Shown: positions 1 to 16,100 of the stretch, one piece after another
Position numbering within the stretch: position 1 is the first letter of the stretch
Layout of the letters: each line of letters begins with the position of its first letter
Assembly: GCA_017983495.1 (NCBI GenBank)
Contig: JAGOBH010000002.1
Coordinates: forward strand, 434,001-498,000
Length of the DNA: 64,000 nucleotides
DNA from: Pyrinomonadaceae bacterium
GTDB taxonomy: Bacteria > Acidobacteriota > Blastocatellia > Pyrinomonadales > Pyrinomonadaceae
Direction of reading: 5' to 3'
Notes under the pieces: generated by a model
The model's input: the letters and a program-made list of their open reading frames with translations, nothing else
Database searches by the model: none
Told to the model about the DNA's origin: nothing
Made by a program: the position numbers and the translations under genes

Positions 1-2728
1 CTATTTCGATTTTGACCTTGCGATCGGATTTTTTAATGGAGCTGGTGGAACGGATGCGTTCAACGGAACTCAGATATTAAACAATCACATCCGTATAGCA
101 CGCGATCTAAACGCCGTCGCCGCTCCGGGCGAAACTTTTCAGAATATAGGTATCCACTATTCGTTTGGTTCTAACCAAATGATTTCAGGCAATACGATCG
201 ATTTCAGCGGCGACGACGTGAGCAACGGAGTAAATTACTCATCTCAGATCGGAATGCAGTCAAATACGAGTGGTGGTGCAGTTTACAATGGTCTGCAGAT
301 CACTAACAACATCCTTCGGGTGAATTTCGCTCAAGATGCGGTAAATCCACAGGTGATCCTGGGAATATGGGAAAACGCCCATGGCCATTCAAGTAATATT
401 TCTGTCAACGGGAATAGCTTTAGTAACCTGGCGGGCGGCAACAACCCGTCAACTAATTTGCAAAGGGCTTTTCGAGTGACTTCGCACTCGTCACCAACGA
501 CAGCGGTAACTTATGCCTATAACTCTGTTAGCGGCGCAAATATTGGTTTTCAATGGTATAGCTCCATAAGTGTGCCAGTCGGCGGACAGCCGATTCAATT
601 GATTAGCAATACGATTCGAAATGGAGCCACCGGTGTTCTCGTCCAAGGTCCGGGACTCGCAAATCTCAGCTTCAATCGAATCGTCGGAAATTCGCTCTTT
701 GGCGTTGATAGTTCCGCAGGCACAACGACCGCCAATGACAATTGGTGGGGATGCAACTATGGTCCGGGAGCTACGGGAACGGGTTGTAGCGGAACGGCGA
801 ATGGCACAACCGGAACTGTCACTGCGACTACGTGGCTAACGTTGACGACGTCCGCAAGTCCGAACTCGGTTGCAATTGGAAACAATTCGACTGTTACCTC
901 GTTGCTTACGATCAACTCTGCTAGCACAAACACTGTCGGATCAGGCTATGTACCAAACGGCACTCCGGCGACGTTTGTCGGTACCTTCGGAACCGTAACT
1001 CCGCCGAGCGGAACAACGACCTCCGGAAGCACCGGTACATTGTTCACAAGCACGGCGTATGGAGCGGGCGGTGTGGCAACAACGGTGGACGGGCAGACTG
1101 TAAGTGCTGCTATTAACGTAACACCGCTATGTGCAGACGTTTCCACGCCGGTCGTGTCGTCACAGACGACGTATCCTGCGTTGACAGGCGTGGCTGTTTC
1201 GATCCCTGTCAACACGACAGACCTGACGACACGCGGTGTGATCGCGGCTGATTTTACGTTCAACTATAACGATACCGTGTTGAGCGGCAATCCGGCTGAC
1301 ATTTCGGTGACACCGGGCACGCTTAGCCCGAGTGCGGTGATCCTGATCAACACACCGGCGAGTGGTTCGGTCGTCGTCTCGGTTTACGATACGGCTGGCT
1401 TTAGTGGTGCCGGTCCGCTTGTTTATCTGAACATGCGGGTGATCGGTGCCAATCTGACCTCGACACCGCTGACACTGACCAACTTCCGTTATAACAACAC
1501 GTTGGTTTGCTCGAACGTCACCAGCGGAACACTTAACGTAGTTTCGGGTACGACATCCGGTAAGGTGACGTTTGAAAATTCGATCACGCCAAATATTCCG
1601 GTGCCGAATGTAACGCTTACTGCTGCCGGTTCGCCGGTGATATCGGATGTGACGGATTCGAACGGTGACTATTCACTGACAGGATTCGGAGCAGGTCCGT
1701 ACACTGTTACGCCGACCCGGCCGAATCAGAACTATGCAACGCCGAACGGCATCTTTTCGTTTGATGCCGGATTGGTAGCTCAGCATGTGGTTGGCCTTAT
1801 TACGCTTACAGGTCCCAGACTTGAGGCGGCAAAGGTCAGCGGCCTTCCGACGGTATCGTCATTTGAAGCCGCTCTTATTGCTCAGTGGACAGTCAATATC
1901 AATCTGCCGATCAACCAGACCGGACGCTGGAAATTCACGCCTCCGACAACGTCGCCCAATGTCAACGTGAACGGAACGCAGGATTACCTCGCTCTTCTGA
2001 TGGGTGATGTTGACGGCGACTGGGTAACCGGCAACAATCGGCCGATTCCGACCAATAAGACTGGTTCCAAGGATGCCGTCCGGGCATCGGTTCCGACTAT
2101 GGAAGCGATATCCGGCTCTGAGGTGATAATACCGTTCAAGATCGACAATCTGCAGGGCAAGCAAGTGGGTTCGTATCAATTCGACGTCCAGTTTGATCCA
2201 ACCGTGCTTGAGCCCCAGGAGATCGTAGCCGATCTGGCCGGAACGATCAGCGAGAGTCTGAGTATGGCCGCCAACTCACCTCAGCCGGGACTGGTAAAGG
2301 TCACGGTATATGGTGCAATACCGGTCGGTGGCGACGGCGTGTACGTCAATCTGAGATTCGTGACGGTGGGTGCGGTCGGTACGACGACACCGCTCAGCGT
2401 TTCGGCATTCAGATTTAACAATGGCGAAAACGAGGTCATCACAGCAGACGGACAACTAACGGTCGCCGCGTCAAACAATACGACGATCCGCGGACGGCTC
2501 GTGACCGCACTGGGCCAGCCGGTGTCAAACGGCCGTGTAACACTGACGAGCAGTACGGGCGAGACCCGTTCGGCAATGTCGGGTTCGTTCGGATCATTTG
2601 AGTTCGGTGACCTCGTCATCGGCGAAACCTACACCGTTACCGTTCAGGCAAAACGATTCTCATTCACACCGAGAACCGTCAGCGTAAACGGAAATGTAAC
2701 GGAAATTGACATGATAGCTGATCAATAA
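1..2728 (+). CDS. Secreted beta-helix / cohesin / dockerin-like protein, 5' partial
   Basis: The reading frame is open from base 2, so the protein starts upstream of the window. Modules in order by base position: parallel beta-helix repeats to about 760, ending in an NWWG motif typical of such helices; an Ig-like Thr/Ser-rich domain (about 835-1130); a cohesin-like beta-sandwich (about 1135-1555); a B-type repeat (1555-1720); a dockerin-like pair of helical repeats (FDAGLVAQHVVG and FEAALIAQW, about 1741-1900) followed by a GDVDGDW motif; a second cohesin-like domain (about 2080-2465); and a carboxypeptidase-regulatory-like domain to the stop. No catalytic residues are recognised. It is a close paralogue of the next gene over the C-terminal half. 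Extracellular location and a binding or assembly role are inferred. The exact domain families need a profile search. Confidence 0.85.
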   Translation, partial: YFDFDLAIGFFNGAGGTDAFNGTQILNNHIRIARDLNAVAAPGETFQNIGIHYSFGSNQMISGNTIDFSGDDVSNGVNYSSQIGMQSNTSGGAVYNGLQITNNILRVNFAQDAVNPQVILGIWENAHGHSSNISVNGNSFSNLAGGNNPSTNLQRAFRVTSHSSPTTAVTYAYNSVSGANIGFQWYSSISVPVGGQPIQLISNTIRNGATGVLVQGPGLANLSFNRIVGNSLFGVDSSAGTTTANDNWWGCNYGPGATGTGCSGTANGTTGTVTATTWLTLTTSASPNSVAIGNNSTVTSLLTINSASTNTVGSGYVPNGTPATFVGTFGTVTPPSGTTTSGSTGTLFTSTAYGAGGVATTVDGQTVSAAINVTPLCADVSTPVVSSQTTYPALTGVAVSIPVNTTDLTTRGVIAADFTFNYNDTVLSGNPADISVTPGTLSPSAVILINTPASGSVVVSVYDTAGFSGAGPLVYLNMRVIGANLTSTPLTLTNFRYNNTLVCSNVTSGTLNVVSGTTSGKVTFENSITPNIPVPNVTLTAAGSPVISDVTDSNGDYSLTGFGAGPYTVTPTRPNQNYATPNGIFSFDAGLVAQHVVGLITLTGPRLEAAKVSGLPTVSSFEAALIAQWTVNINLPINQTGRWKFTPPTTSPNVNVNGTQDYLALLMGDVDGDWVTGNNRPIPTNKTGSKDAVRASVPTMEAISGSEVIIPFKIDNLQGKQVGSYQFDVQFDPTVLEPQEIVADLAGTISESLSMAANSPQPGLVKVTVYGAIPVGGDGVYVNLRFVTVGAVGTTTPLSVSAFRFNNGENEVITADGQLTVAASNNTTIRGRLVTALGQPVSNGRVTLTSSTGETRSAMSGSFGSFEFGDLVIGETYTVTVQAKRFSFTPRTVSVNGNVTEIDMIADQ

Positions 2729-2744
2729 GATCCGCTATCCCTTA

Positions 2745-2782
2745 GGCAGGCGGGGAACCATCCCCGCCTGCCATTTTCGCTT
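2745..2782 (+). terminator. Rho-independent terminator of the first gene
   Basis: A perfect 12-bp GC-rich stem (2745-2756 with 2761-2772) closes an ACCA loop and is followed by ATTTTCGCTTTT. It lies 17 bases after the stop codon. Confidence 0.9.
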
Positions 2783-2798
2783 TTCTCAGTTTGAAAGC

Positions 2799-2820
2799 GC
2801 TCCGATCCGTCGGAGCTTTT
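2799..2820 (+). terminator. Second, shorter terminator hairpin
   Basis: A 7-bp stem (GCTCCGA / TCGGAGC) with a TCCG loop is followed by TTTT. It sits just after the first terminator and would act as a back-up before the next promoter. Confidence 0.6.
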
Positions 2821-2950
2821 CATGATTGTATACCAGCTACGACTGGTGGAAAGACCGCGAATTAGTAGGGTGTATTATCAGCCCGGACCCGACCCAAAAA
2901 ACACTATCCAAAACTGGACTTGTTCATTTATCATATAAAGGAGAATTGGA

Positions 2951-5900
2951 ATGTTCACAACCCCGCCCAACCCGGCACAACAAAGCTCAACAAAAATGGT
3001 TTCAGCAGGATCAAAACTCATATCCATCAGAAAACTTGCGATCGGCATTGCGTTCGTCATGGTTGCATTCGCCGTTTTCACGCTAAACGTAGCCGCTCAG
3101 GCGATCGATTTCGAATCGCCCGGCTACACGCTGGGTAATATCAATGGGCAAAACGGTTGGATGAAGACCGGTCCATACGATGTCGCAGTCTCGCCGAGCG
3201 GCGGAACAGCCGGATTTGGTCTTCAGAGCTTTCGAATATCTAACGCTTCGACGTCGGGTTCCTTCGGTGATTGGGCCATTTCTCCATCTAACGCCAACGA
3301 AGCCGGTGAAGCGGGTGCTGCGAATGGAGGACTTTCAGGGGGGACTCGAAAAAACTACTTTGAGGCAAGTTTCAGCATCGCGTCGGCGGTTCCCGGTGCT
3401 CAGCAGCCGGGACTCCAGGCTCAATTTGCACCTGATCGAGGCGACGGTTCCCGCATGAGTTCGATCCGATTCGAAGATCAGCCGGACGGGATCCATGTAA
3501 TGTTTTTTGACTATCAGGATCTCGCACCGTTTGGAACATCGCTCGGCGACGCGGTAGGTTGTGGGACCGAGGACAATTTCTTTCAGTCGGATATTGCTAC
3601 GCTTGATCGGACGGTTCCGCACACGATCAAGATCGAAATGTATTTCGTTGACGGCCCGCGAAACGATGTCGTCAAGGTCTATATCGACGGAGTTTTGAAA
3701 AAGGTCGGCACCAGCTGGGAAGACTATTTTCGTTATTGTGAGGGAAATCCGACGCGTACCGTGGATTCACTGATATTTCTTGCTCGAAGTGGAGCAGGAA
3801 CAGCCCCGGCAACGCTTGGCTTTGGATTTCTGATCGACGGACTCTCGATGTCGTCAGGTGCGCAATCGGTGGCAAAGGTAACGTCACTGGACCTCGGCCT
3901 TTCAAATTGGTTCATGTTCAATGATGAGACAAATACGGTCGACAATTCGATGGTCTCATTTGTATCCGGGCCGTCTTCTCCGGTTTACGGTTCGGGCAGT
4001 GCCCAGGTTAGCGTAACGGGCACCCAACGACGGAATCTTTCGACGAGCCTGTTCGGCGGAACCAATCTTTCTGCGATCAACACGATGAAGTTCCGCACAT
4101 ACAACCCGTCAGCGGGAAATGGCGGGTCGGCAAGCCGTTCGGGTTATCTGAATTTCAATGTGGACTTTAACGCAAGTAATACCTACCAGAACCGGCTTGT
4201 TTTTGTTCCAAGCCAAAATGGGGCCGTTGCGCAAAACGCTTGGAAAGAATGGGATGCGATCAACGGTGGCAGTGCTCTGTGGAGTTTCTCGGGCACGACA
4301 TGGCCGGCCGGCATCGGCGGCGGTGGTGAGCCCGGAACTACTTTGAAGACCTGGACGCAGATCCTTAGTCAATATCCGAGTGCAAAGATGCTCGCGTTAT
4401 ATCCATTCACGGGAATACGTGTGGGCGAACCGTATCCCGACGGCTACACCGAAAATATCGATTCGTTTACATTCGGCACGTCGGCCGGAACGACAGTTTA
4501 TGATTTCGAACCGCTTTTGTTGCAGGTAGATGACGATTCGATCCAGTGTCCGGGTGCCGGTTACTCAACCATTCAGTCTGCTATAAACGCGGCAGGACCC
4601 GGAGCAACCGTTCAGGTATGCGCCGGGACTTATACCGAAGACATTAATGTGAATAAGGCTGGTCTCACCTTGATCGGCGCTGGCGTCGATGTTTCGACCA
4701 TTATTGGACCGCATCTCACCGGTGACGGAAACACTGTTCTCATCACCGCAAGTGGTGTCACCGTTGACGGGTTTACTATTACCAGGACCGGCAACACTGT
4801 CGGGGACTGGGTATCAAATCCTCAAAGCCAGGGTGTTAATGTTGCTGCCAGTTCCGGATTTACATTGCAGAACAGTAAGCTCACCGGAAATCGAAACGCG
4901 ATCTATGTCGGTCAGTCTTCGAACAACGTGACGATCCGGCGGAATATTATCGATTTTAACCGAACCGGAATTCATCTGGTGGACAACAACGGTGCGACGA
5001 TCGAGGAGAATTTCATCACCAATAACTGGACGATGGGAATTCTATATCGCACTGAGGGCGGAGCGGCTCCGACACAGATGACCGTCCGTGGTAATCATAT
5101 TTCGGGCAACTGGTTCAGCGATATTGAATTTCGTGAACCGGCCGGCGTTGCCGCACTCAATATGTCGGGTAACTATCTAGGAACGACTAATCCGACCCGA
5201 GTCGTGACGGAACTAATGGAACCGGGCTATACAGTTCAGATCCCGGTTGCCTATGGCGGTACCGCGATCGCACCCGCATCTCATCCGACAGTCTCAGGTT
5301 CGGAATCGGCGTTTGTTGACTACTCACCGTTCCTGAACAGCGGCATTGATACCCAGCCTGGAACACTCGGATTTCAGGGTGACCTGACCAACCTGACGGT
5401 AAACGCTGACAGCGCGCAGGCAAATGGTGCCGGCGGCAACATCCAGGAAGGCATCAATATGGTCAATTCCGGTGGAAATGTCACTGCTTTGGCCGGAACA
5501 TATTCAGGTAATGTGGACATCAACCGCGCAGTCACTCTGCTCGGAACACCGACCTTCACCGGTTCGCTTACTACAAGCGCGGCCGGGGCGGCAATAAGTC
5601 CCGGATTCAGCCCGGGAATTATAAACAGCGGCGATGTTTCGCTTTCGACCGGATCTAATTTGAACATGCAGCTGAACGGAACGGCTGTCGGAACGCAATA
5701 CGATCAATTGAACGTAACGGGGACCGTCAGTCTCGGCGGAGCGACCCTGAACGTATTGCCCGGCTATAGTCCAACGGTTGCTGATTCGTTCACTATCATC
5801 AACAACGATGGCGTTGACCCTGTGGTTGGCACATTCAATGGCCTGGCCCAAGGCTCGACTCTGATCGCCGGTGGAAATACATATCAGATCAGCTATATCG

Positions 5901-7537
5901 GTGGGTCCGGCAATGATGTCACGTTGACCGTTACGGTTGTTACCTGCAATGATGTTTCGACGCCTGTGATGACCTCGCAAACGGGCGTTCCGGTCACTAT
6001 TCCGATAAACACGACCGACCTGACCACGCGTGGTGTGATCTCGGCTGATTTTGTATTTACATACAATACGTCGGTGCTCGATTCGACCCCCGCGAATATC
6101 ACAGTAACGCCCGGAGCATTCCTGAACGGCACGGCCGTGATCACGATCAATAAGAATGTCGCCGGAACTATACGAGTTTCGGTTTACGACGCTTACGGTA
6201 TCAACGGTGCTGGAGCTTTGGTCAACATTAATATGAACGTGATCGGTCCGATCGGCTCAGTGTCGCCATTGACACTCAGTGGTTTTCTGTACAATGGCGG
6301 ACTACTCTGCTCAAGCTCTACTAGTGGGACACTGACGGTCATTTCAGGTACGGTAGCCGGCAAGGTGACATACGAGAACACACTTGTTCTTAACTACCCG
6401 GTGCCGAATACTAATCTGAATGCTCCCGGAACGCCGACCGTGTCGGATGTGTCAGACGCTAACGGTGATTATTCGTTATCGGGATTTGGTTTTGGCTCAT
6501 ATACTGTGACCCCGTCGCGGGCCGCGATGAGTTACCTCACGCCGAATGGGATCTTTAGTAACGATGCAGGGCTGATAGCTCAACATGTTGTCCAACTGAT
6601 CACACTCACACCAACGCAGGTCAATTCAGCACTGGTTGGCCCACTGCCGACGCTGACGTCGTTTGACGCCGCCCTGATCGCACAGTGGATAGTCGGGATC
6701 CCAAACCCGCTCAATTCTACCGGCACGTGGCGGTTTAATCCGGCAAATCGAAACTACGCAAATCTAAACGCGAGTTATACGTCGCAAGGCTATGCGGCGA
6801 GATTGATGGGTGACGTCAACGGCGACTGGGTTACGGGGAATAATCGGCCGATCGCCACCAGGCAGGAAGGTTCCAAGGACTCCGTCAGGGCGTCGCTGCC
6901 GGAGATACAGGCATCATCCGGAACTGAGGTGATCGTACCGTTCAGGATCGATAACCTTCAAGGCAAGCTGGTCGGATCGTATCAGTTCGACGTAGAGTAC
7001 GATCCCAATGTACTCGAACCCAGCGAGGTGGCGGCCGATCTGACGGACACGAACAGCAACGGCCTTGCTGTGGTCTCCAACGCTCCGATTCCCGGACTTC
7101 TGAAGGTAGCGGTTTACGGTGCGGTGCCGGTCGGGGGCGATGGAACATTCGTCCACCTGAAGTTCCGGACGATTGGAGCCACTGGCAGCACTTCGCCGCT
7201 TGCGGTCCGTGCCTTCAGGGTCAATGACGGAAACGATGAGGTTATTACCCGGGATGGTCAGGTTACGGTCAGGGCCGCCGCTAATAATTCTGTTATTCGC
7301 GGCCGTCTCGTGACAGCGATGGGCTTGACGGTAGCGAACGGCCGGGTAACTCTGACCAGTAGTGCTGGAGCGGTCAGAACGACGATCTCAAGTTCATTAG
7401 GTCAATTCGAATTTAGCGAACTCGTTGTTGGTGAAACTTACACTATCACCGTACAAGCCAAACGGTTCGCGTTCACACCAAGATCTGTAGTTGTCGATGG
7501 CGAGGCTGTCGAAATTCAGATGATAGCTGACCAATAG
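2951..7537 (+). CDS. Giant secreted protein: lectin-like, beta-helix, cohesin and dockerin-like modules
   Basis: 1528 residues. The ATG is preceded by AAAGGAG at 7 bases, which supports this start. An extended N-region leads into a signal peptide around residues 27-50 ending AAQA. Then come a concanavalin-like sandwich region (about 50-310), a second beta-rich region, a right-handed beta-helix (about 530-760), an autotransporter-like beta-strand repeat (about 810-990), a cohesin-like domain (about 998-1140), a B-type repeat, two dockerin-like repeats (NDAGLIAQHVV near 1200 and FDAALIAQW near 1237), a GDVNGDW motif near 1287, a second cohesin-like domain (about 1310-1440) and a carboxypeptidase-regulatory-like tail. 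The tail half repeats the upstream gene's architecture, pointing to tandem duplication. No enzyme active site is recognised. A role as surface adhesin or scaffold is inferred. Confidence 0.88.
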   Translation: MFTTPPNPAQQSSTKMVSAGSKLISIRKLAIGIAFVMVAFAVFTLNVAAQAIDFESPGYTLGNINGQNGWMKTGPYDVAVSPSGGTAGFGLQSFRISNASTSGSFGDWAISPSNANEAGEAGAANGGLSGGTRKNYFEASFSIASAVPGAQQPGLQAQFAPDRGDGSRMSSIRFEDQPDGIHVMFFDYQDLAPFGTSLGDAVGCGTEDNFFQSDIATLDRTVPHTIKIEMYFVDGPRNDVVKVYIDGVLKKVGTSWEDYFRYCEGNPTRTVDSLIFLARSGAGTAPATLGFGFLIDGLSMSSGAQSVAKVTSLDLGLSNWFMFNDETNTVDNSMVSFVSGPSSPVYGSGSAQVSVTGTQRRNLSTSLFGGTNLSAINTMKFRTYNPSAGNGGSASRSGYLNFNVDFNASNTYQNRLVFVPSQNGAVAQNAWKEWDAINGGSALWSFSGTTWPAGIGGGGEPGTTLKTWTQILSQYPSAKMLALYPFTGIRVGEPYPDGYTENIDSFTFGTSAGTTVYDFEPLLLQVDDDSIQCPGAGYSTIQSAINAAGPGATVQVCAGTYTEDINVNKAGLTLIGAGVDVSTIIGPHLTGDGNTVLITASGVTVDGFTITRTGNTVGDWVSNPQSQGVNVAASSGFTLQNSKLTGNRNAIYVGQSSNNVTIRRNIIDFNRTGIHLVDNNGATIEENFITNNWTMGILYRTEGGAAPTQMTVRGNHISGNWFSDIEFREPAGVAALNMSGNYLGTTNPTRVVTELMEPGYTVQIPVAYGGTAIAPASHPTVSGSESAFVDYSPFLNSGIDTQPGTLGFQGDLTNLTVNADSAQANGAGGNIQEGINMVNSGGNVTALAGTYSGNVDINRAVTLLGTPTFTGSLTTSAAGAAISPGFSPGIINSGDVSLSTGSNLNMQLNGTAVGTQYDQLNVTGTVSLGGATLNVLPGYSPTVADSFTIINNDGVDPVVGTFNGLAQGSTLIAGGNTYQISYIGGSGNDVTLTVTVVTCNDVSTPVMTSQTGVPVTIPINTTDLTTRGVISADFVFTYNTSVLDSTPANITVTPGAFLNGTAVITINKNVAGTIRVSVYDAYGINGAGALVNINMNVIGPIGSVSPLTLSGFLYNGGLLCSSSTSGTLTVISGTVAGKVTYENTLVLNYPVPNTNLNAPGTPTVSDVSDANGDYSLSGFGFGSYTVTPSRAAMSYLTPNGIFSNDAGLIAQHVVQLITLTPTQVNSALVGPLPTLTSFDAALIAQWIVGIPNPLNSTGTWRFNPANRNYANLNASYTSQGYAARLMGDVNGDWVTGNNRPIATRQEGSKDSVRASLPEIQASSGTEVIVPFRIDNLQGKLVGSYQFDVEYDPNVLEPSEVAADLTDTNSNGLAVVSNAPIPGLLKVAVYGAVPVGGDGTFVHLKFRTIGATGSTSPLAVRAFRVNDGNDEVITRDGQVTVRAAANNSVIRGRLVTAMGLTVANGRVTLTSSAGAVRTTISSSLGQFEFSELVVGETYTITVQAKRFAFTPRSVVVDGEAVEIQMIADQ

Positions 7538-7610: not shown

Positions 7611-8483
7611 ATGTTCATAAAGTTGATAAATGAGTTCGTCGCGGGCATATCTAGCGATTTCAGAAATCGGGGTGGAAATGTTCAAATAGGTCTTTTCACG
7701 ATTCTACTAACTGTTCTGCTTTCATCGGATGTTGCCGCAGGTGGACTCAACAATCCTCTGGCAAAAGTGGACCTGAAAGCACTAACGCCGCCGGTCGAAT
7801 ACACAGCACCGATCGAGAATAGACCTGTTGGGTTGCCTTTCACTGTGCCGATAACGGTTGATGATATTACCGGAGACGGAATATTCGCGTTTCAGTTCGT
7901 AATCACATACGACCCGGCGGTGATCGATCCTACCGGACCTAATTTTGGTTGCTCGACATTCGGGACAATTGCAGGGGCGGTCGGTATCGGAGCAACCTGC
8001 AATATTACGGTCAACGGCTCCTTAAATGAGCTACGTGTTTCGTCGTTTGGCGCGTTTCCTATGAATGGATCCGGGACCTTACTGAACATTAGCTTTGTCA
8101 CCGATCCGCTTGCGGTGGCCGGAGATGTTTCCCCGCTTACTTTTAGCTCTGGCTTTTTTTTCAATGGTTCCGGACTGGTTCCGAGCACGCCGCACAACGG
8201 ACAGATTACGCTAGTTGGTACGACGGCGGCTAACACGACCGTGGCGGGGCGGGTGCTGAATGCTAACGGGATTCCGATACCGAGGACGATCGTCACTCTG
8301 TCGAATGGTAATGGAGCTGCGTTTACATCTATCACCAACCCGTTTGGCTATTTTCGGATAGTCGGCGTCGATACAGGTCAGACATACGTTCTGCAGGCTC
8401 AGTCGAAACGTCATACGTTTGCGCCCCAGGTCATCACGGTCAATGAGGAGTTGACCGAGGTCGAGATAACAGCTTTGCCGTAA
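7611..8483 (+). CDS. Small secreted cohesin-like protein with regulatory-like tail
   Basis: 290 residues. A hydrophobic signal segment (about residues 25-44, ending DVAAG) is followed by one cohesin-like domain (about 55-205, with the FQFVITYDPAVI strand typical of the fold) and a carboxypeptidase-regulatory-like domain (about 208-290) that matches the ends of the two preceding proteins. No dockerin-like repeats are present. It lies 73 bases after the giant gene with only a hairpin between, so the two may be co-transcribed. It may be a binding partner for the dockerin-like segments encoded upstream; this is inference from gene order and domain content. The start is preceded by AAAGAGG about 12 bases away. 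Confidence 0.8.
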   Translation: MFIKLINEFVAGISSDFRNRGGNVQIGLFTILLTVLLSSDVAAGGLNNPLAKVDLKALTPPVEYTAPIENRPVGLPFTVPITVDDITGDGIFAFQFVITYDPAVIDPTGPNFGCSTFGTIAGAVGIGATCNITVNGSLNELRVSSFGAFPMNGSGTLLNISFVTDPLAVAGDVSPLTFSSGFFFNGSGLVPSTPHNGQITLVGTTAANTTVAGRVLNANGIPIPRTIVTLSNGNGAAFTSITNPFGYFRIVGVDTGQTYVLQAQSKRHTFAPQVITVNEELTEVEITALP

Positions 8484-11465: not shown

Positions 11466-13106
11466 ATGACCTTTCTTAAAACCGACCTTACAGCACACAC
11501 AGATCTTCACGAACACGGATCCGGTACGGGAGCGGTTCGCAGTAAGCGGCCGGCTTATGTCGACTTTCTACCGCCGTGCAATAACGCTTGCCCGGCGGGC
11601 GAGGACATCCAGGCATGGTTATCGCTTGCGCAAGCCGGACAGTATTTTGACGCATGGAAAAAGCTGACCGAGGACAACCCGATGGCGGCGATCCACGGCC
11701 GGGTCTGTTATCACCCCTGCGAAAGTTCTTGTAACCGCGGACACGTTGACACTTCAGTCAGCATTCATGCGATCGAGCGATTTCTCGGGGACATGGCAAT
11801 TAAGGAGGAGTGGAAATTCCCACTTGAAGCAAGATCGACCGGGAAACGCGTGCTGATCATCGGAGCAGGCCCGAGCGGTCTCTCGGCGGCCTACCACCTA
11901 AAGCGTCTGGGGCATTCTGTATCGATGTTCGAGGCAGGGCCGATGGCCGGCGGAATGATGAACTTCGGAATTCCGGCCTATCGTCTGCCGCGAAATGTGC
12001 TCAGAGCCGAGATCAAACGGATCGAGGACATGGGCGTGGAAATCAAACTGAATTACAAGGTCGATGATGTACTGGCAGAAAAAACGGCCGGGAACTTTGA
12101 CGCAGTCTTTATCGCGATCGGTGCTCACATTGGCAAAAAGACCGATATTCCCGCGAGAGATGCCGGAAAGATACTTGACGCTGTCAGTTTCCTGAAGGAT
12201 GTTGAGATGGGTCTGAATCCGCAGATCGGACGCCGAGTTGCTATTTATGGCGGCGGCAATACTGCGATGGACGCGGCGCGGACGGCAAAGCGTCTCGGAG
12301 CCGAAGAGGCGTTGATCATCTACCGACGTGACCGCGAACATATGCCGGCACACGATTTCGAAGCAGACGAGGCTCTTAGCGAAGGCATTAAGATCCACTG
12401 GCTGCGTAGTATCAAGAATCTAGATTCAACGTCGGTAACTGTCGAAAAGATGGACATCAAAGATGGCCGGCCGGTGCCGACCGGCGTTTTTGAAACGCTC
12501 GAGGCCGATTCGGTGATCCTGGCTCTTGGGCAGGCGACCGAGACCGATTTTCTTGAAGGAATTGAGGGCATACAGTTTGCGGAGGACGGAACTGTGGTCG
12601 TCGATAAGCAAATGATGACCGGACACGCCGGTATATTCGCCGGCGGCGACATGGTGCCGAGCGAGCGAACGGTGACGATCGCGACCGGTCATGGTAAGAA
12701 GGCAGCCCGAAACATCGACGCCTGGCTTAGCGGAGCCAACTATGAAAAGCAAGCTAGCAATCCCCTTGTTTCGGTCGAACAGCTTCACATCTGGTATCGA
12801 ACCAATGCGGACGCAAAACCGCAGGAGCACATCGAACCGCTGGTTGCGGCCAAAGGTTTTGACGAGATCGTCGCTGGATATTCCGAGGAAGAGGCCCGAT
12901 ACGAGGCACAACGCTGCTATTCGTGTGGTAACTGTTTCGAATGCGACGGTTGCTTTGGGGCCTGTCCGGAGAACGCAGTTATCAAGCTTGGCCCGGGCAA
13001 ACGATATAAATTTAATTACAAATTGTGCACCGGCTGCGGCGTTTGCTATGAACAATGCCCGTGTCACGCCATCGACATGATAGCCGAGCCGGAGGCCGGA
13101 AAATAA
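11466..13106 (+). CDS. GltD-like NAD(P)H/FAD oxidoreductase with 4Fe-4S ferredoxin domains
   Basis: 546 residues. An N-terminal Cys-rich iron-sulfur domain (about 38-90: CNNACPAGED, CYHPCESSC) resembles the one before the flavin domain in glutamate synthase small subunits. A Rossmann FAD site (IGAGPSG, about 130) and an NAD(P) site (GGGNTAMDAAR, about 261) follow. Two 4Fe-4S clusters sit at the C-terminus (CFECDGCFGACP, CTGCGVCYEQCP). The stop overlaps the nifJ start (TAATG), so the two are translationally coupled. The likely role is electron transfer between NAD(P)H and ferredoxin tied to pyruvate oxidation. It is not a plain GltD: no GltB is nearby and the ferredoxin tail is extra. No ribosome-binding site is visible; the start lies in a very AT-rich tract and has no good alternative. 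Confidence 0.85.
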   Translation: MTFLKTDLTAHTDLHEHGSGTGAVRSKRPAYVDFLPPCNNACPAGEDIQAWLSLAQAGQYFDAWKKLTEDNPMAAIHGRVCYHPCESSCNRGHVDTSVSIHAIERFLGDMAIKEEWKFPLEARSTGKRVLIIGAGPSGLSAAYHLKRLGHSVSMFEAGPMAGGMMNFGIPAYRLPRNVLRAEIKRIEDMGVEIKLNYKVDDVLAEKTAGNFDAVFIAIGAHIGKKTDIPARDAGKILDAVSFLKDVEMGLNPQIGRRVAIYGGGNTAMDAARTAKRLGAEEALIIYRRDREHMPAHDFEADEALSEGIKIHWLRSIKNLDSTSVTVEKMDIKDGRPVPTGVFETLEADSVILALGQATETDFLEGIEGIQFAEDGTVVVDKQMMTGHAGIFAGGDMVPSERTVTIATGHGKKAARNIDAWLSGANYEKQASNPLVSVEQLHIWYRTNADAKPQEHIEPLVAAKGFDEIVAGYSEEEARYEAQRCYSCGNCFECDGCFGACPENAVIKLGPGKRYKFNYKLCTGCGVCYEQCPCHAIDMIAEPEAGK

Positions 13107-16100
13107 TGAGATCAGATAAACAACAAGTAGTTACGCTCGATGGAAATGAGGCGGCGGTTTTTGTCGCCTATCGTGTAAACGAGGTCTGTGCGATCTACCC
13201 GATCACACCTTCGTCCGCTATGGCCGAATTTGCGGACGAATGGTCGGCAAAGGACATCAAGAACATCTGGGGCAACACGCCCGAGGTCATCGAGATGCAG
13301 AGCGAAGGCGGCGCGGCGGGAACGGTGCATGGTGCATTGCAGACCGGTTCGCTGACGACGACCTTTACGGCATCTCAAGGGCTGATGCTGATGCTGCCGA
13401 ACATGTACAAGATCGCCGGCGAATTGACGGCGGCCGTATTTCACGTCGCTGCGCGTTCACTGGCTGCACAGGGCCTGTCGATCTTTGGTGATCATCAGGA
13501 CGTGATGGCTGCCCGCACCACCGGATTTGCATTGCTCGCGGCCTCAAGCGTTCAGGAGGCCCACGATATGGCTCTGATCGCGCAGGCGACGACCCTGCGG
13601 GCACGCGTTCCGTTCATACACTTTTTCGACGGATTTAGAACCTCGCACGAGGTGAACAAGATCGACTTTCTGTCCGATGAGCAGATCCGGGCGATGATCG
13701 ATGACGATCTGGTGTTTGGCCATCGCCGCCGAGCACTGAACCCTGACAATCCGTTCATTCGCGGAACGGCCCAAAATCCGGATGTGTATTTTCAGGGCAG
13801 AGAAACCGTCAACCCGTATTACGATGCCGTACCGTCGATCCTGAAAGAGGAAATGCGTAAGTTTGCCGAGTTGACGGGCCGGGAGTATGCGCCGGTTACG
13901 TACTTCGGAGCCCCGGACGCTGAAAGGGTCATCGTTGTGATGGGGTCGGGCGTTGAGACCGCGGCCGAGACCGCTGCTTTTCTTGCGGAAAACGGCGAGA
14001 AGACCGGTGTTCTTCAGATCACGCTGTATCGGCCGTTTCCGGCAGAGGACTTTGTCTCGACATTGCCGGCGACAGTCAAGAGCATCGCGGTACTTGACCG
14101 CACAAAGGAACCCGGAGCTTCCGGAGAGCCGATGTATCAGGACGTGATGATCACACTGATGGAAGCGGTGTCTGGCGGCCGAATGGCGGCAATGCCGTTG
14201 ATCGTCGGGGGCCGCTACGGCCTTTCGTCCAAGGAATTCACACCGGCGATGGTCAAGGCCGTGTTCGACAATCTTGCTGCTGATTCGCCCAAAAATCACT
14301 TCACGGTCGGTATCATCGACGACGTTGGCAATACGAGCCTCGACGTCGACAGCAACTTTACACTGGATGAGTCGGACTGGACACAAGCCCTATTTTACGG
14401 CCTCGGGGCCGATGGCACGGTCGGTGCGAACAAGAACAGCATAAAGATCATCGGCGAGAACACCGAACTCTCTGCTCAGGGGTATTTCGTTTATGATTCG
14501 AAAAAGTCCGGAGCAAAGACCGTCTCGCACCTCAGATTCGGCAAAAAGCCGATCAAGGCTCCGTATCTCATCACCTCGGCAGATTTTATTGCGTGTCATC
14601 AGTTCAATTTTCTCGAAAGGGAAGAGATGCTGTCGCTCGCAAAACCCGGAGCAACGTTTCTGCTCAACAGTCCTTTTGGTCCGGATGATGTTTGGGACGA
14701 ATTGCCGCTGACAGTACAGCAGGCGATCATTGAAAAAGGGATCAAACTGCACGTGATCGACGCGGCGGACGTAGCCCAAAAGACCGGTATGGCCGGCCGC
14801 ATAAACACGATCATGCAAACGTGTTTCTTTGCACTTTCCGGGGTTCTGCCGCCGGATGAGGCGATAGCTCAGATCAAGAAAGCGATTGAGAAAACATATC
14901 TGAAGAAAGGCCGTTCGGTGGTAGAAAAAAACTATGTAGCGGTCGATCAAACACTTGAGAATCTGTTTTCGGTGTCGATCCCAGAGACTGCTACGGCTGC
15001 GGCCGCGGGGTATTCCGGAATATCATCTAAAGCTCCCGAATTTGTCCGCACGGTAACGCAAGCGATGATATCGGGACTTGGCGATTCGATCCCGGTCAGT
15101 GCTTTTCCGGCAGACGGGACCTATCCAAGCGGAACATCAAAATGGGAAAAGCGTAATGTTTCGAGCCGTGTAGCCGTTTGGGAGCCGGAGCTTTGCATCC
15201 AATGCGGTAATTGCAGTTTTGTATGCCCGCACAGTGTCATTCGATCCAAATTCTTCCACAAGGATCAACTGGAAAATGCGCCCGACGGGTTTAAGTCCGC
15301 ACCGATCAATGCGAGAGGATTCCCGGAAACTAAATATTCGCTTCAGGTCTATCTTGAGGACTGTACGGGGTGTAATCTCTGCTATGAAGTGTGTCCGGTA
15401 GATGACCGCGGTAACGGCGACCGTCGTGCTATAAATCTCGACGACAAGCCTGCGGCGTTAGATCCGGAACGCGACAAGATCGAATTCTTTGAGGGGCTTC
15501 CGCAAAACGAAAAGCCCGAGGTCGATTTTTCAACGGTCCATGGCGTCCAGTTTCTCGAACCTCTTTTTGAGTTCTCGGGGGCATGTGCCGGATGTGGGGA
15601 AACTCCGTACATCAAGGTGTTGACGCAGCTATATGGTGACCGACTGCTGGTGGCGAACGCTACGGGATGTTCGTCGATCTACGGCGGCAATCTGCCGACA
15701 ACACCTTGGACGTGCAATTCGGCCGGGCAGGGGCCGGCGTGGTCGAATTCACTTTTTGAGGATAATGCCGAGTTTGGTCTTGGTATGCGACTTACTACGG
15801 ACAAGCAGCTTGAAACAGCCCATCAGCTACTCGACCGCATGCGGCCGCAGCTTGGAGACGCACTTGTCGACGAACTGGTCAACGCTCCGCAGCATCTGGA
15901 GAGTCAGATAAAGGAACAACGCAGGCGCGTGGTTGAACTAAAATCGAAGCTCGAACAGATCGACAGTTCCGATGCCCGGCATTTGTCATCGGTCGTTGAT
16001 CAGCTTGTTCACCGCAGCGTCTGGCTGATCGGTGGTGATGGATGGGCTTACGATATCGGTGCCGGTGGTCTGGATCATGCTCTCGCGAGCGGTCGAAATG

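What the first reader, a model, noticed from the sequence alone, without database searches (positions are those of the whole stretch)
1..7537. Tandem giant proteins carrying both cohesin-like and dockerin-like modules
Each of two adjacent secreted proteins carries two cohesin-like domains and a dockerin-like repeat pair (FDAGLVAQHVVG ... FEAALIAQW; NDAGLIAQHVV ... FDAALIAQW), plus beta-helices, but no visible carbohydrate-active enzyme. In cellulosomes the two partners sit on different proteins. Having both on one chain would allow self-assembly into extracellular chains or a matrix. The dockerin calcium loops look degenerate, so binding may differ from the classic type.
Basis: partly seen in the sequence, partly recalled or inferred. 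Interest (0 to 1): 0.65.

Follow-up and report, generated by a model that had tools for sequence, protein, structure and literature searches.

The report
Non-cellulosomal scaffoldin-like proteins with cohesin and dockerin
Two neighbouring secreted bacterial proteins each carry both halves of the molecular 'plug and socket' known from cellulose-degrading complexes but no recognisable enzyme, so they may link to each other into a surface layer or matrix; such two-in-one proteins are known, but here plug and socket are always fused and the plug's calcium site is damaged.

Summary
Both proteins have two real cohesin domains (Pfam PF00963 over cut-off) flanking a dockerin-type helical pair, preceded by an X-like beta-sandwich. 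Pfam does not score the window's helices as Dockerin_1. Relatives in the same slot do pass, a family profile matches solved dockerins, and AlphaFold2 gives a dockerin helix pattern. The best structural match of the Coh-X-Doc-Coh unit is the Coh-X-DocII end of C. thermocellum scaffoldin CipA. What is distinctive: (1) all of this genome's detectable cohesins and X-Docs sit in one five-gene locus, with no dockerin-bearing enzyme found; (2) in the class, each of 41 assessable X-Docs is followed by a cohesin on the same chain; (3) the second calcium loop is ruined in one supported clade that includes all three copies here, although the helices are conserved. Most likely these are non-cellulosomal, scaffoldin-like surface proteins that assemble with each other. 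Binding was not testable here; a clasp within one chain, or no binding at all, remain open. New variant of a known kind.

The parts
1..2728 (+). gene C, 3' part (last 908 of 1293 aa); its start is at contig C7:432847, outside the window
1154..1543 (+). protein C cohesin 1 (aa 770-899), directly N-terminal of the X module; keeps Asp at the position equivalent to Asp39 of type I cohesins
1547..1744 (+). protein C X-like module (transthyretin / CarboxypepD_reg-type beta-sandwich) and link to the dockerin-like part
1745..1900 (+). protein C dockerin-like module, two loop-helix repeats (helices about 1757-1789 and 1859-1891); calcium loop 2 degenerate
1901..2035 (+). strands after the dockerin, ending in GDVDGDW; part of the X-Doc unit
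2081..2467 (+). protein C cohesin 2 (aa 1079-1207), SYQFD type
2483..2725 (+). protein C C-terminal CarboxypepD_reg-like domain, shared by 24 strong matches in the genome
2951..7537 (+). gene D, 1528 aa
4709..5176 (+). protein D right-handed beta-helix (NosD / Beta_helix), aa 587-742
5951..6343 (+). protein D cohesin 1 (aa 1001-1131)
6347..6544 (+). protein D X-like module
6545..6706 (+). protein D dockerin-like module; calcium loop 2 degenerate
6707..6841 (+). strands after the dockerin, ending in GDVNGDW
6887..7273 (+). protein D cohesin 2 (aa 1313-1441), SYQFD type
7292..7534 (+). protein D C-terminal CarboxypepD_reg-like domain
7611..8483 (+). gene E, 290 aa: signal-like N-terminus, one cohesin (7797-8216), same C-terminal domain (8238-8480); 73 bases after D

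Best explanation
These are scaffoldin-like secreted proteins outside any cellulosome. N-terminal cargo (beta-helices, a beta-propeller, Ig-type folds) is joined to a conserved tail: cohesin, X module, dockerin, cohesin, C-terminal beta-sandwich. SHOWN: cohesin homology; dockerin homology through relatives, profile and predicted fold; X-Doc followed by a cohesin in every assessable class member; all detected cohesins and X-Docs of the genome in one five-gene locus; no enzyme domain in the relatives scanned. INFERRED: the dockerin of one molecule binds a cohesin of another copy or paralogue (A-E), giving head-to-tail chains or a network that displays the cargo at the cell surface or in the matrix, with the shared C-terminal domain involved in export or surface retention. 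In this genome the dockerin must fold with little or no calcium at its second loop.
For: Cohesin. Dockerin: (4uyq_B ScaB dockerin over 57 columns, rmsd 2.3). Same module order as the CipA Coh-X-DocII end: ranks 1-4 (4fl4_C E 8.5e-15; 3kcp_A). Closed set. X-Doc genomes all have cohesin: 20 of 20 against 56 of 142 of the others (partly trivial, since both sit on one chain). X-Doc followed by a cohesin 4-45 residues on in 40 of 43; two exceptions run off their contig and the third is followed by a cohesin-like stretch judged by eye. Cargo without hydrolases. Published proposals of cohesin/dockerin adhesion or self-aggregation: PMC5814915, PMC9012536, PMC10553843.
Against: Window dockerin loop 2 lacks the calcium residues that classic dockerins need. 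X-Doc and cohesin are tethered by only about 10-20 residues in most members, so a clasp within the chain is possible. The Asp39-type cohesin is not found next to the seven X-Docs of G115, which have no upstream cohesin, so that position does not explain pairing. Dockerins too diverged for the profiles would be missed.
Confidence: 0.5

Rival explanations
1. Clasp within the chain: the dockerin docks onto the neighbouring cohesin of its own chain and makes a rigid, closed tail; no polymer forms.
For: The X-Doc/cohesin order and short gap are nearly constant, unlike cellulosomal dockerins that travel on separate proteins; the AF2 model of the whole unit is fairly confident (mean pLDDT 89, pTM 0.66).
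Confidence: 0.22
2. Structural leftovers: X-Doc and cohesins are used only as stable beta-sandwich and helical spacers and no longer bind each other.
For: Loop 2 of the window dockerins has lost Asp1, Asn5 and Gly6; cohesin 2 has Gln where classic type I cohesins have Asp39.
Against: Most relatives keep a canonical loop 2 (Asp1 in 36 of 43) and loop residue 12 is acidic in all 43 in both repeats; the degenerate clade is one supported group with conserved helices, not random decay.
Confidence: 0.18
3. A true enzyme scaffold whose dockerin-bearing clients were not recognised (highly diverged dockerins, or proteins of neighbouring species).
For: Gene A carries another helical repeat pair with one relative elsewhere in the genome (C17) that Pfam does not recognise; cohesins outnumber X-Docs in the locus.
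Against: No Dockerin_1 match in the genome, only three X-Docs; no hydrolase fused to the units in the relatives scanned.
Confidence: 0.1

Closest known systems
C-terminal Coh9-X-DocII of the scaffoldin CipA (C. thermocellum; 3kcp, 4fl4)
   Same: Order cohesin, X module, dockerin; best fold match of the unit; the X part aligns to scaffoldin X-modules
   Different: A second cohesin and a CarboxypepD_reg tail follow the dockerin; no CBM, no row of cohesins, no detected dockerin enzymes; dockerin sequence is nearer type I; X-Doc orientation differs (rmsd about 11 over the whole X-Doc)
Non-cellulosomal cohesin/dockerin proteins (Peer et al. 2009, not readable here; ANME archaea PMC9012536; seep sulfate reducers PMC10553843; Ca. 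Stygibacter PMC8542988)
   Same: Secreted proteins with cohesins and dockerins in organisms without a cellulosome; ANME proteins with one dockerin and several cohesins
   Different: In ANME and Stygibacter dockerins also occur on separate client proteins; here every assessable class X-Doc is fused to a cohesin
Amy4 of the R. bromii amylosome (PMC5814915)
   Same: Cohesin and dockerin on one chain; proposed to self-aggregate
   Different: Amy4 is an amylase within a multi-enzyme complex and its dockerin needs calcium; no enzyme domain here

Membership tests
Cohesin (PF00963) | Match over the curated cut-off | tested here: met
   Seven matches over cut-off in the genome, all at C7:423886-442210
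Cohesin (PF00963) | Binds a dockerin | not testable with these tools
   No complex prediction or assay available
Dockerin type I (PF00404) | Match over the curated cut-off | tested here: not met
   None in the genome; same-slot relatives do pass, and 16 of 22 aligned units match at E up to 1
Dockerin type I (PF00404) | Two loop-helix repeats with the dockerin fold | tested here: met
   AF2 helices at pLDDT about 95; 4uyq_B rmsd 2.3 over 57 columns; profile hits to 1ohz_B and others
Dockerin type I (PF00404) | Two intact calcium loops (D-x-N/D/S-x-D/N-G-x5-D) | tested here: not met
   Loop 1 is short or irregular across the family; loop 2 is canonical in most relatives but K/L at 1, L at 5, P at 6 in B, C and D
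X-dockerin dyad of scaffoldins | X module directly before the dockerin | tested here: met
   Profile matches to 4wi0_B and 4u3s_B X-modules (E about 0.01); Foldseek best matches 4wi0_B, 2b59_B (E 2.6e-3 to 3.3e-3, so modest)
Cellulosomal scaffoldin system | Dockerin-bearing carbohydrate-active client enzymes | tested here: not met
   No dockerin or X-Doc outside the locus
Cellulosomal scaffoldin system | Carbohydrate-binding module on the scaffold | tested here: not met
   No CBM family in Pfam scans of A (C-terminal two thirds), B, C, D, E

The most novel reading that the evidence does not exclude
A homotypic cohesin-dockerin polymer: surface proteins whose dockerin and cohesins serve only to link copies of themselves, with no enzyme clients, and whose window lineage has evolved pairing that does not depend on the second calcium site.
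Probability: 0.25. Interest if true: 0.7.

Novelty: new variant of a known kind. Interest (0 to 1): 0.45.

Why it matters
Non-cellulosomal cohesins and dockerins have been noted across bacteria and archaea for years with little idea of what they join. Here the set is small and closed: five genes, eight cohesins, three dockerin units, no detected outside clients. The question 'do they bind each other?' can be settled with a handful of recombinant domains. A calcium-independent pair would also be of interest as a protein-linking tool.

Tried and rejected
Direct Pfam, NCBIfam and PDB profile searches with only the window's helical segments: nothing, or chance hits; homology shows only through relatives. 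Profile-profile comparison of the three local dockerins alone with certain dockerins: weak (81%, E 1.2e-5), strong with the family (96.5%, E 7e-10). Idea that the Asp39-type upstream cohesin is the receptor: Asp is enriched in upstream against downstream cohesins (24 of 28 against 6 of 40), but X-Docs without an upstream cohesin do not have it in their downstream cohesin; not supported. Sigma-54 sites before A-E, suggested by an adjacent sigma-54 activator gene: no better than background. Link between lost loop 2 and an Asp-rich terminal GDVDGDW: 3 of 6 against 2 of 37, but the sequences are related, so not used. Broad contig search with the unit: one unrelated locus with X-like repeats. Adjacent same-frame cohesin ORFs in other families looked like stop readthrough but are ordinary neighbouring genes with signal-like starts.

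Full report
WHAT IS THERE. The window is contig C7:434001-498000 of a 4.01-Mb, 19-contig genome. The two genes of the finding belong to a run of five genes on one strand, A-E, at C7:417610-442483. A is 2312 aa, B 2224, C 1293, D 1528 and E 290; intergenic gaps are 799, 824, 222 and 73 bases. C is cut by the window edge. All five end in the same roughly 80-residue CarboxypepD_reg-like domain, which has 24 strong matches in the genome and so is not specific to this system. Start codons of A and B are uncertain.

COHESINS. Pfam Cohesin finds seven domains over its cut-off in the whole genome, all in A-E. An eighth, weaker one in B (aa 1540-1673) is found by a local profile. Solved cohesins of A. 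cellulolyticus, A. fulgidus, C. cellulolyticum and CipA match the profile.

DOCKERIN. In B, C and D a unit 'X-Doc' follows a beta-sandwich: X part, two helical repeats, then strands ending in GDVDGDW or similar. Pfam sees only the X part and finds no Dockerin_1 in the genome. In relatives the same slot between two cohesins passes the Dockerin_1 cut-off, for example G007, G034, G031 and, in another family of the class, G049. Of 22 aligned units 16 match Dockerin_1 at E up to 1. The profile hits solved dockerins (1ohz_B, 2ccl_B, 4uyq_B, R. bromii Amy16) over columns 65-113 and scaffoldin X-modules over columns 14-65, the latter weakly. AF2 of the X-Doc of C gives pLDDT 93.6 and pTM 0.86 with helices at 71-81, 89-95 and 105-115; note that the alignment was made of relatives. 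Its best PDB matches are X-Doc chains of type II complexes, through the X part (E about 3e-3, modest), and the ScaB dockerin aligns over 57 columns at 2.3 A. AF2 of the unit Coh-X-Doc-Coh plus tail gives pLDDT 89 and pTM 0.66; its first four PDB matches are the CipA Coh-X-DocII fragment.

FIXED FUSION. In 162 genomes of the class, 20 have X-Doc at E 1e-20 or better, and all 20 also have Pfam cohesin, against 56 of the other 142 (Fisher p 6e-8; inflated by the shared chain and by relatedness). In 43 full X-Docs examined, 40 have a cohesin 4-45 residues downstream. Two exceptions end with their contig; the third has a stretch that looks like a diverged cohesin by eye. An upstream cohesin abuts the X module in 28 of 43. 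In other families of the phylum the cohesin is on the same chain or in the next gene. This differs from cellulosomes, ANME and Ca. Stygibacter, where dockerins also occur on separate proteins (PMC9012536, PMC8542988).

CALCIUM LOOPS. Across 43 X-Docs, position 12 of the loop is Asp in all 43 (repeat 1) and Asp/Glu in all 43 (repeat 2). Loop 2 has Asp1 in 36, Asn/Asp5 in 30 and Gly6 in 30. In B, C and D loop 2 lacks all three of Asp1, Asn/Asp5 and Gly6. On a tree the copies with a damaged loop (B, C, D, one in G011, two in G034; one of these, L009, was included because of an insertion although its Asp1 remains) form one group with support 99/97. G011 and G034 also carry canonical copies. So the loss is an inherited trait of one sub-clade whose helices remain conserved, which argues against simple decay, though it does not show binding.

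CARGO AND SETTING. N-terminal parts are beta-helix (D), FG-GAP propeller and InlB-type repeats (A). Ten relatives scanned carry beta-helices, DUF5122 or NHL propellers, BACON or Ig domains and no hydrolase (own proteins). A sensor kinase and sigma-54 activator lie upstream of A, without recognisable sigma-54 sites before A-E.

HOW IT PROBABLY WORKS. Because the genome's only detected X-Docs and cohesins are on these proteins, the simplest reading is that they link to each other, between copies or paralogues, as proposed for Amy4 (PMC5814915), building a surface layer or matrix that displays the cargo. This is inference: no interaction was computed or measured, and coordinates of the models were not available. 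A clasp within the chain and loss of binding are the main rivals.

NOVELTY. Cohesin and dockerin on one chain is known (CipA, adaptor scaffoldins in PMC11557425, Amy4, ANME). The new points are the obligate fusion across a class, the absence of detected clients, and the retained clade with a broken calcium loop. The organism was not identified by name; G handles carry none.

Noticed in passing
L002:3562-3804 (gene A, C7:423562-423804): A second kind of helical repeat pair (ITDYVKTGLFAVG ... GDGLITAADYVQAGRYAVG) just before the cohesin of gene A; dockerin-like by eye, not recognised by Pfam; one relative at C17:173323.
   Followed up: partly
window 2483-2725, 7292-7534, 8238-8480: The C-terminal CarboxypepD_reg-like domain has 24 strong matches in the genome, mostly in large open frames: a candidate general export or surface-retention tail.
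   Followed up: partly
window 2015-2035 and 6821-6841 (approx.): Terminal motif G-[DE]-V-x-G-[ND]-W of the X-Doc unit (Gly in 43 of 43, Asp/Glu next in 43 of 43) looks like a partial calcium loop; in this genome it is Asp-rich (GDVDGDW).
   Followed up: partly
relatives, e.g. G014:C1:28466, G018:C3:163870, G023:C4:209593: Many relatives have a single cohesin match in an open frame of about 815-880 aa, possibly a conserved protein of other function; not examined.
   Followed up: no
L001:8716-10899 and 11706-13130: Sensor histidine kinase and sigma-54-type response regulator directly upstream of the five-gene run.
   Followed up: partly
L094:4946-4948: In-frame TAG inside an X-Doc unit plus a frame change upstream in genome G355: broken gene or sequencing error.
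   Followed up: no
L003:5697-10841: A 1715-aa frame in an Acidimicrobiales MAG made of about twelve tandem X/CarboxypepD_reg-like repeats.
   Followed up: no
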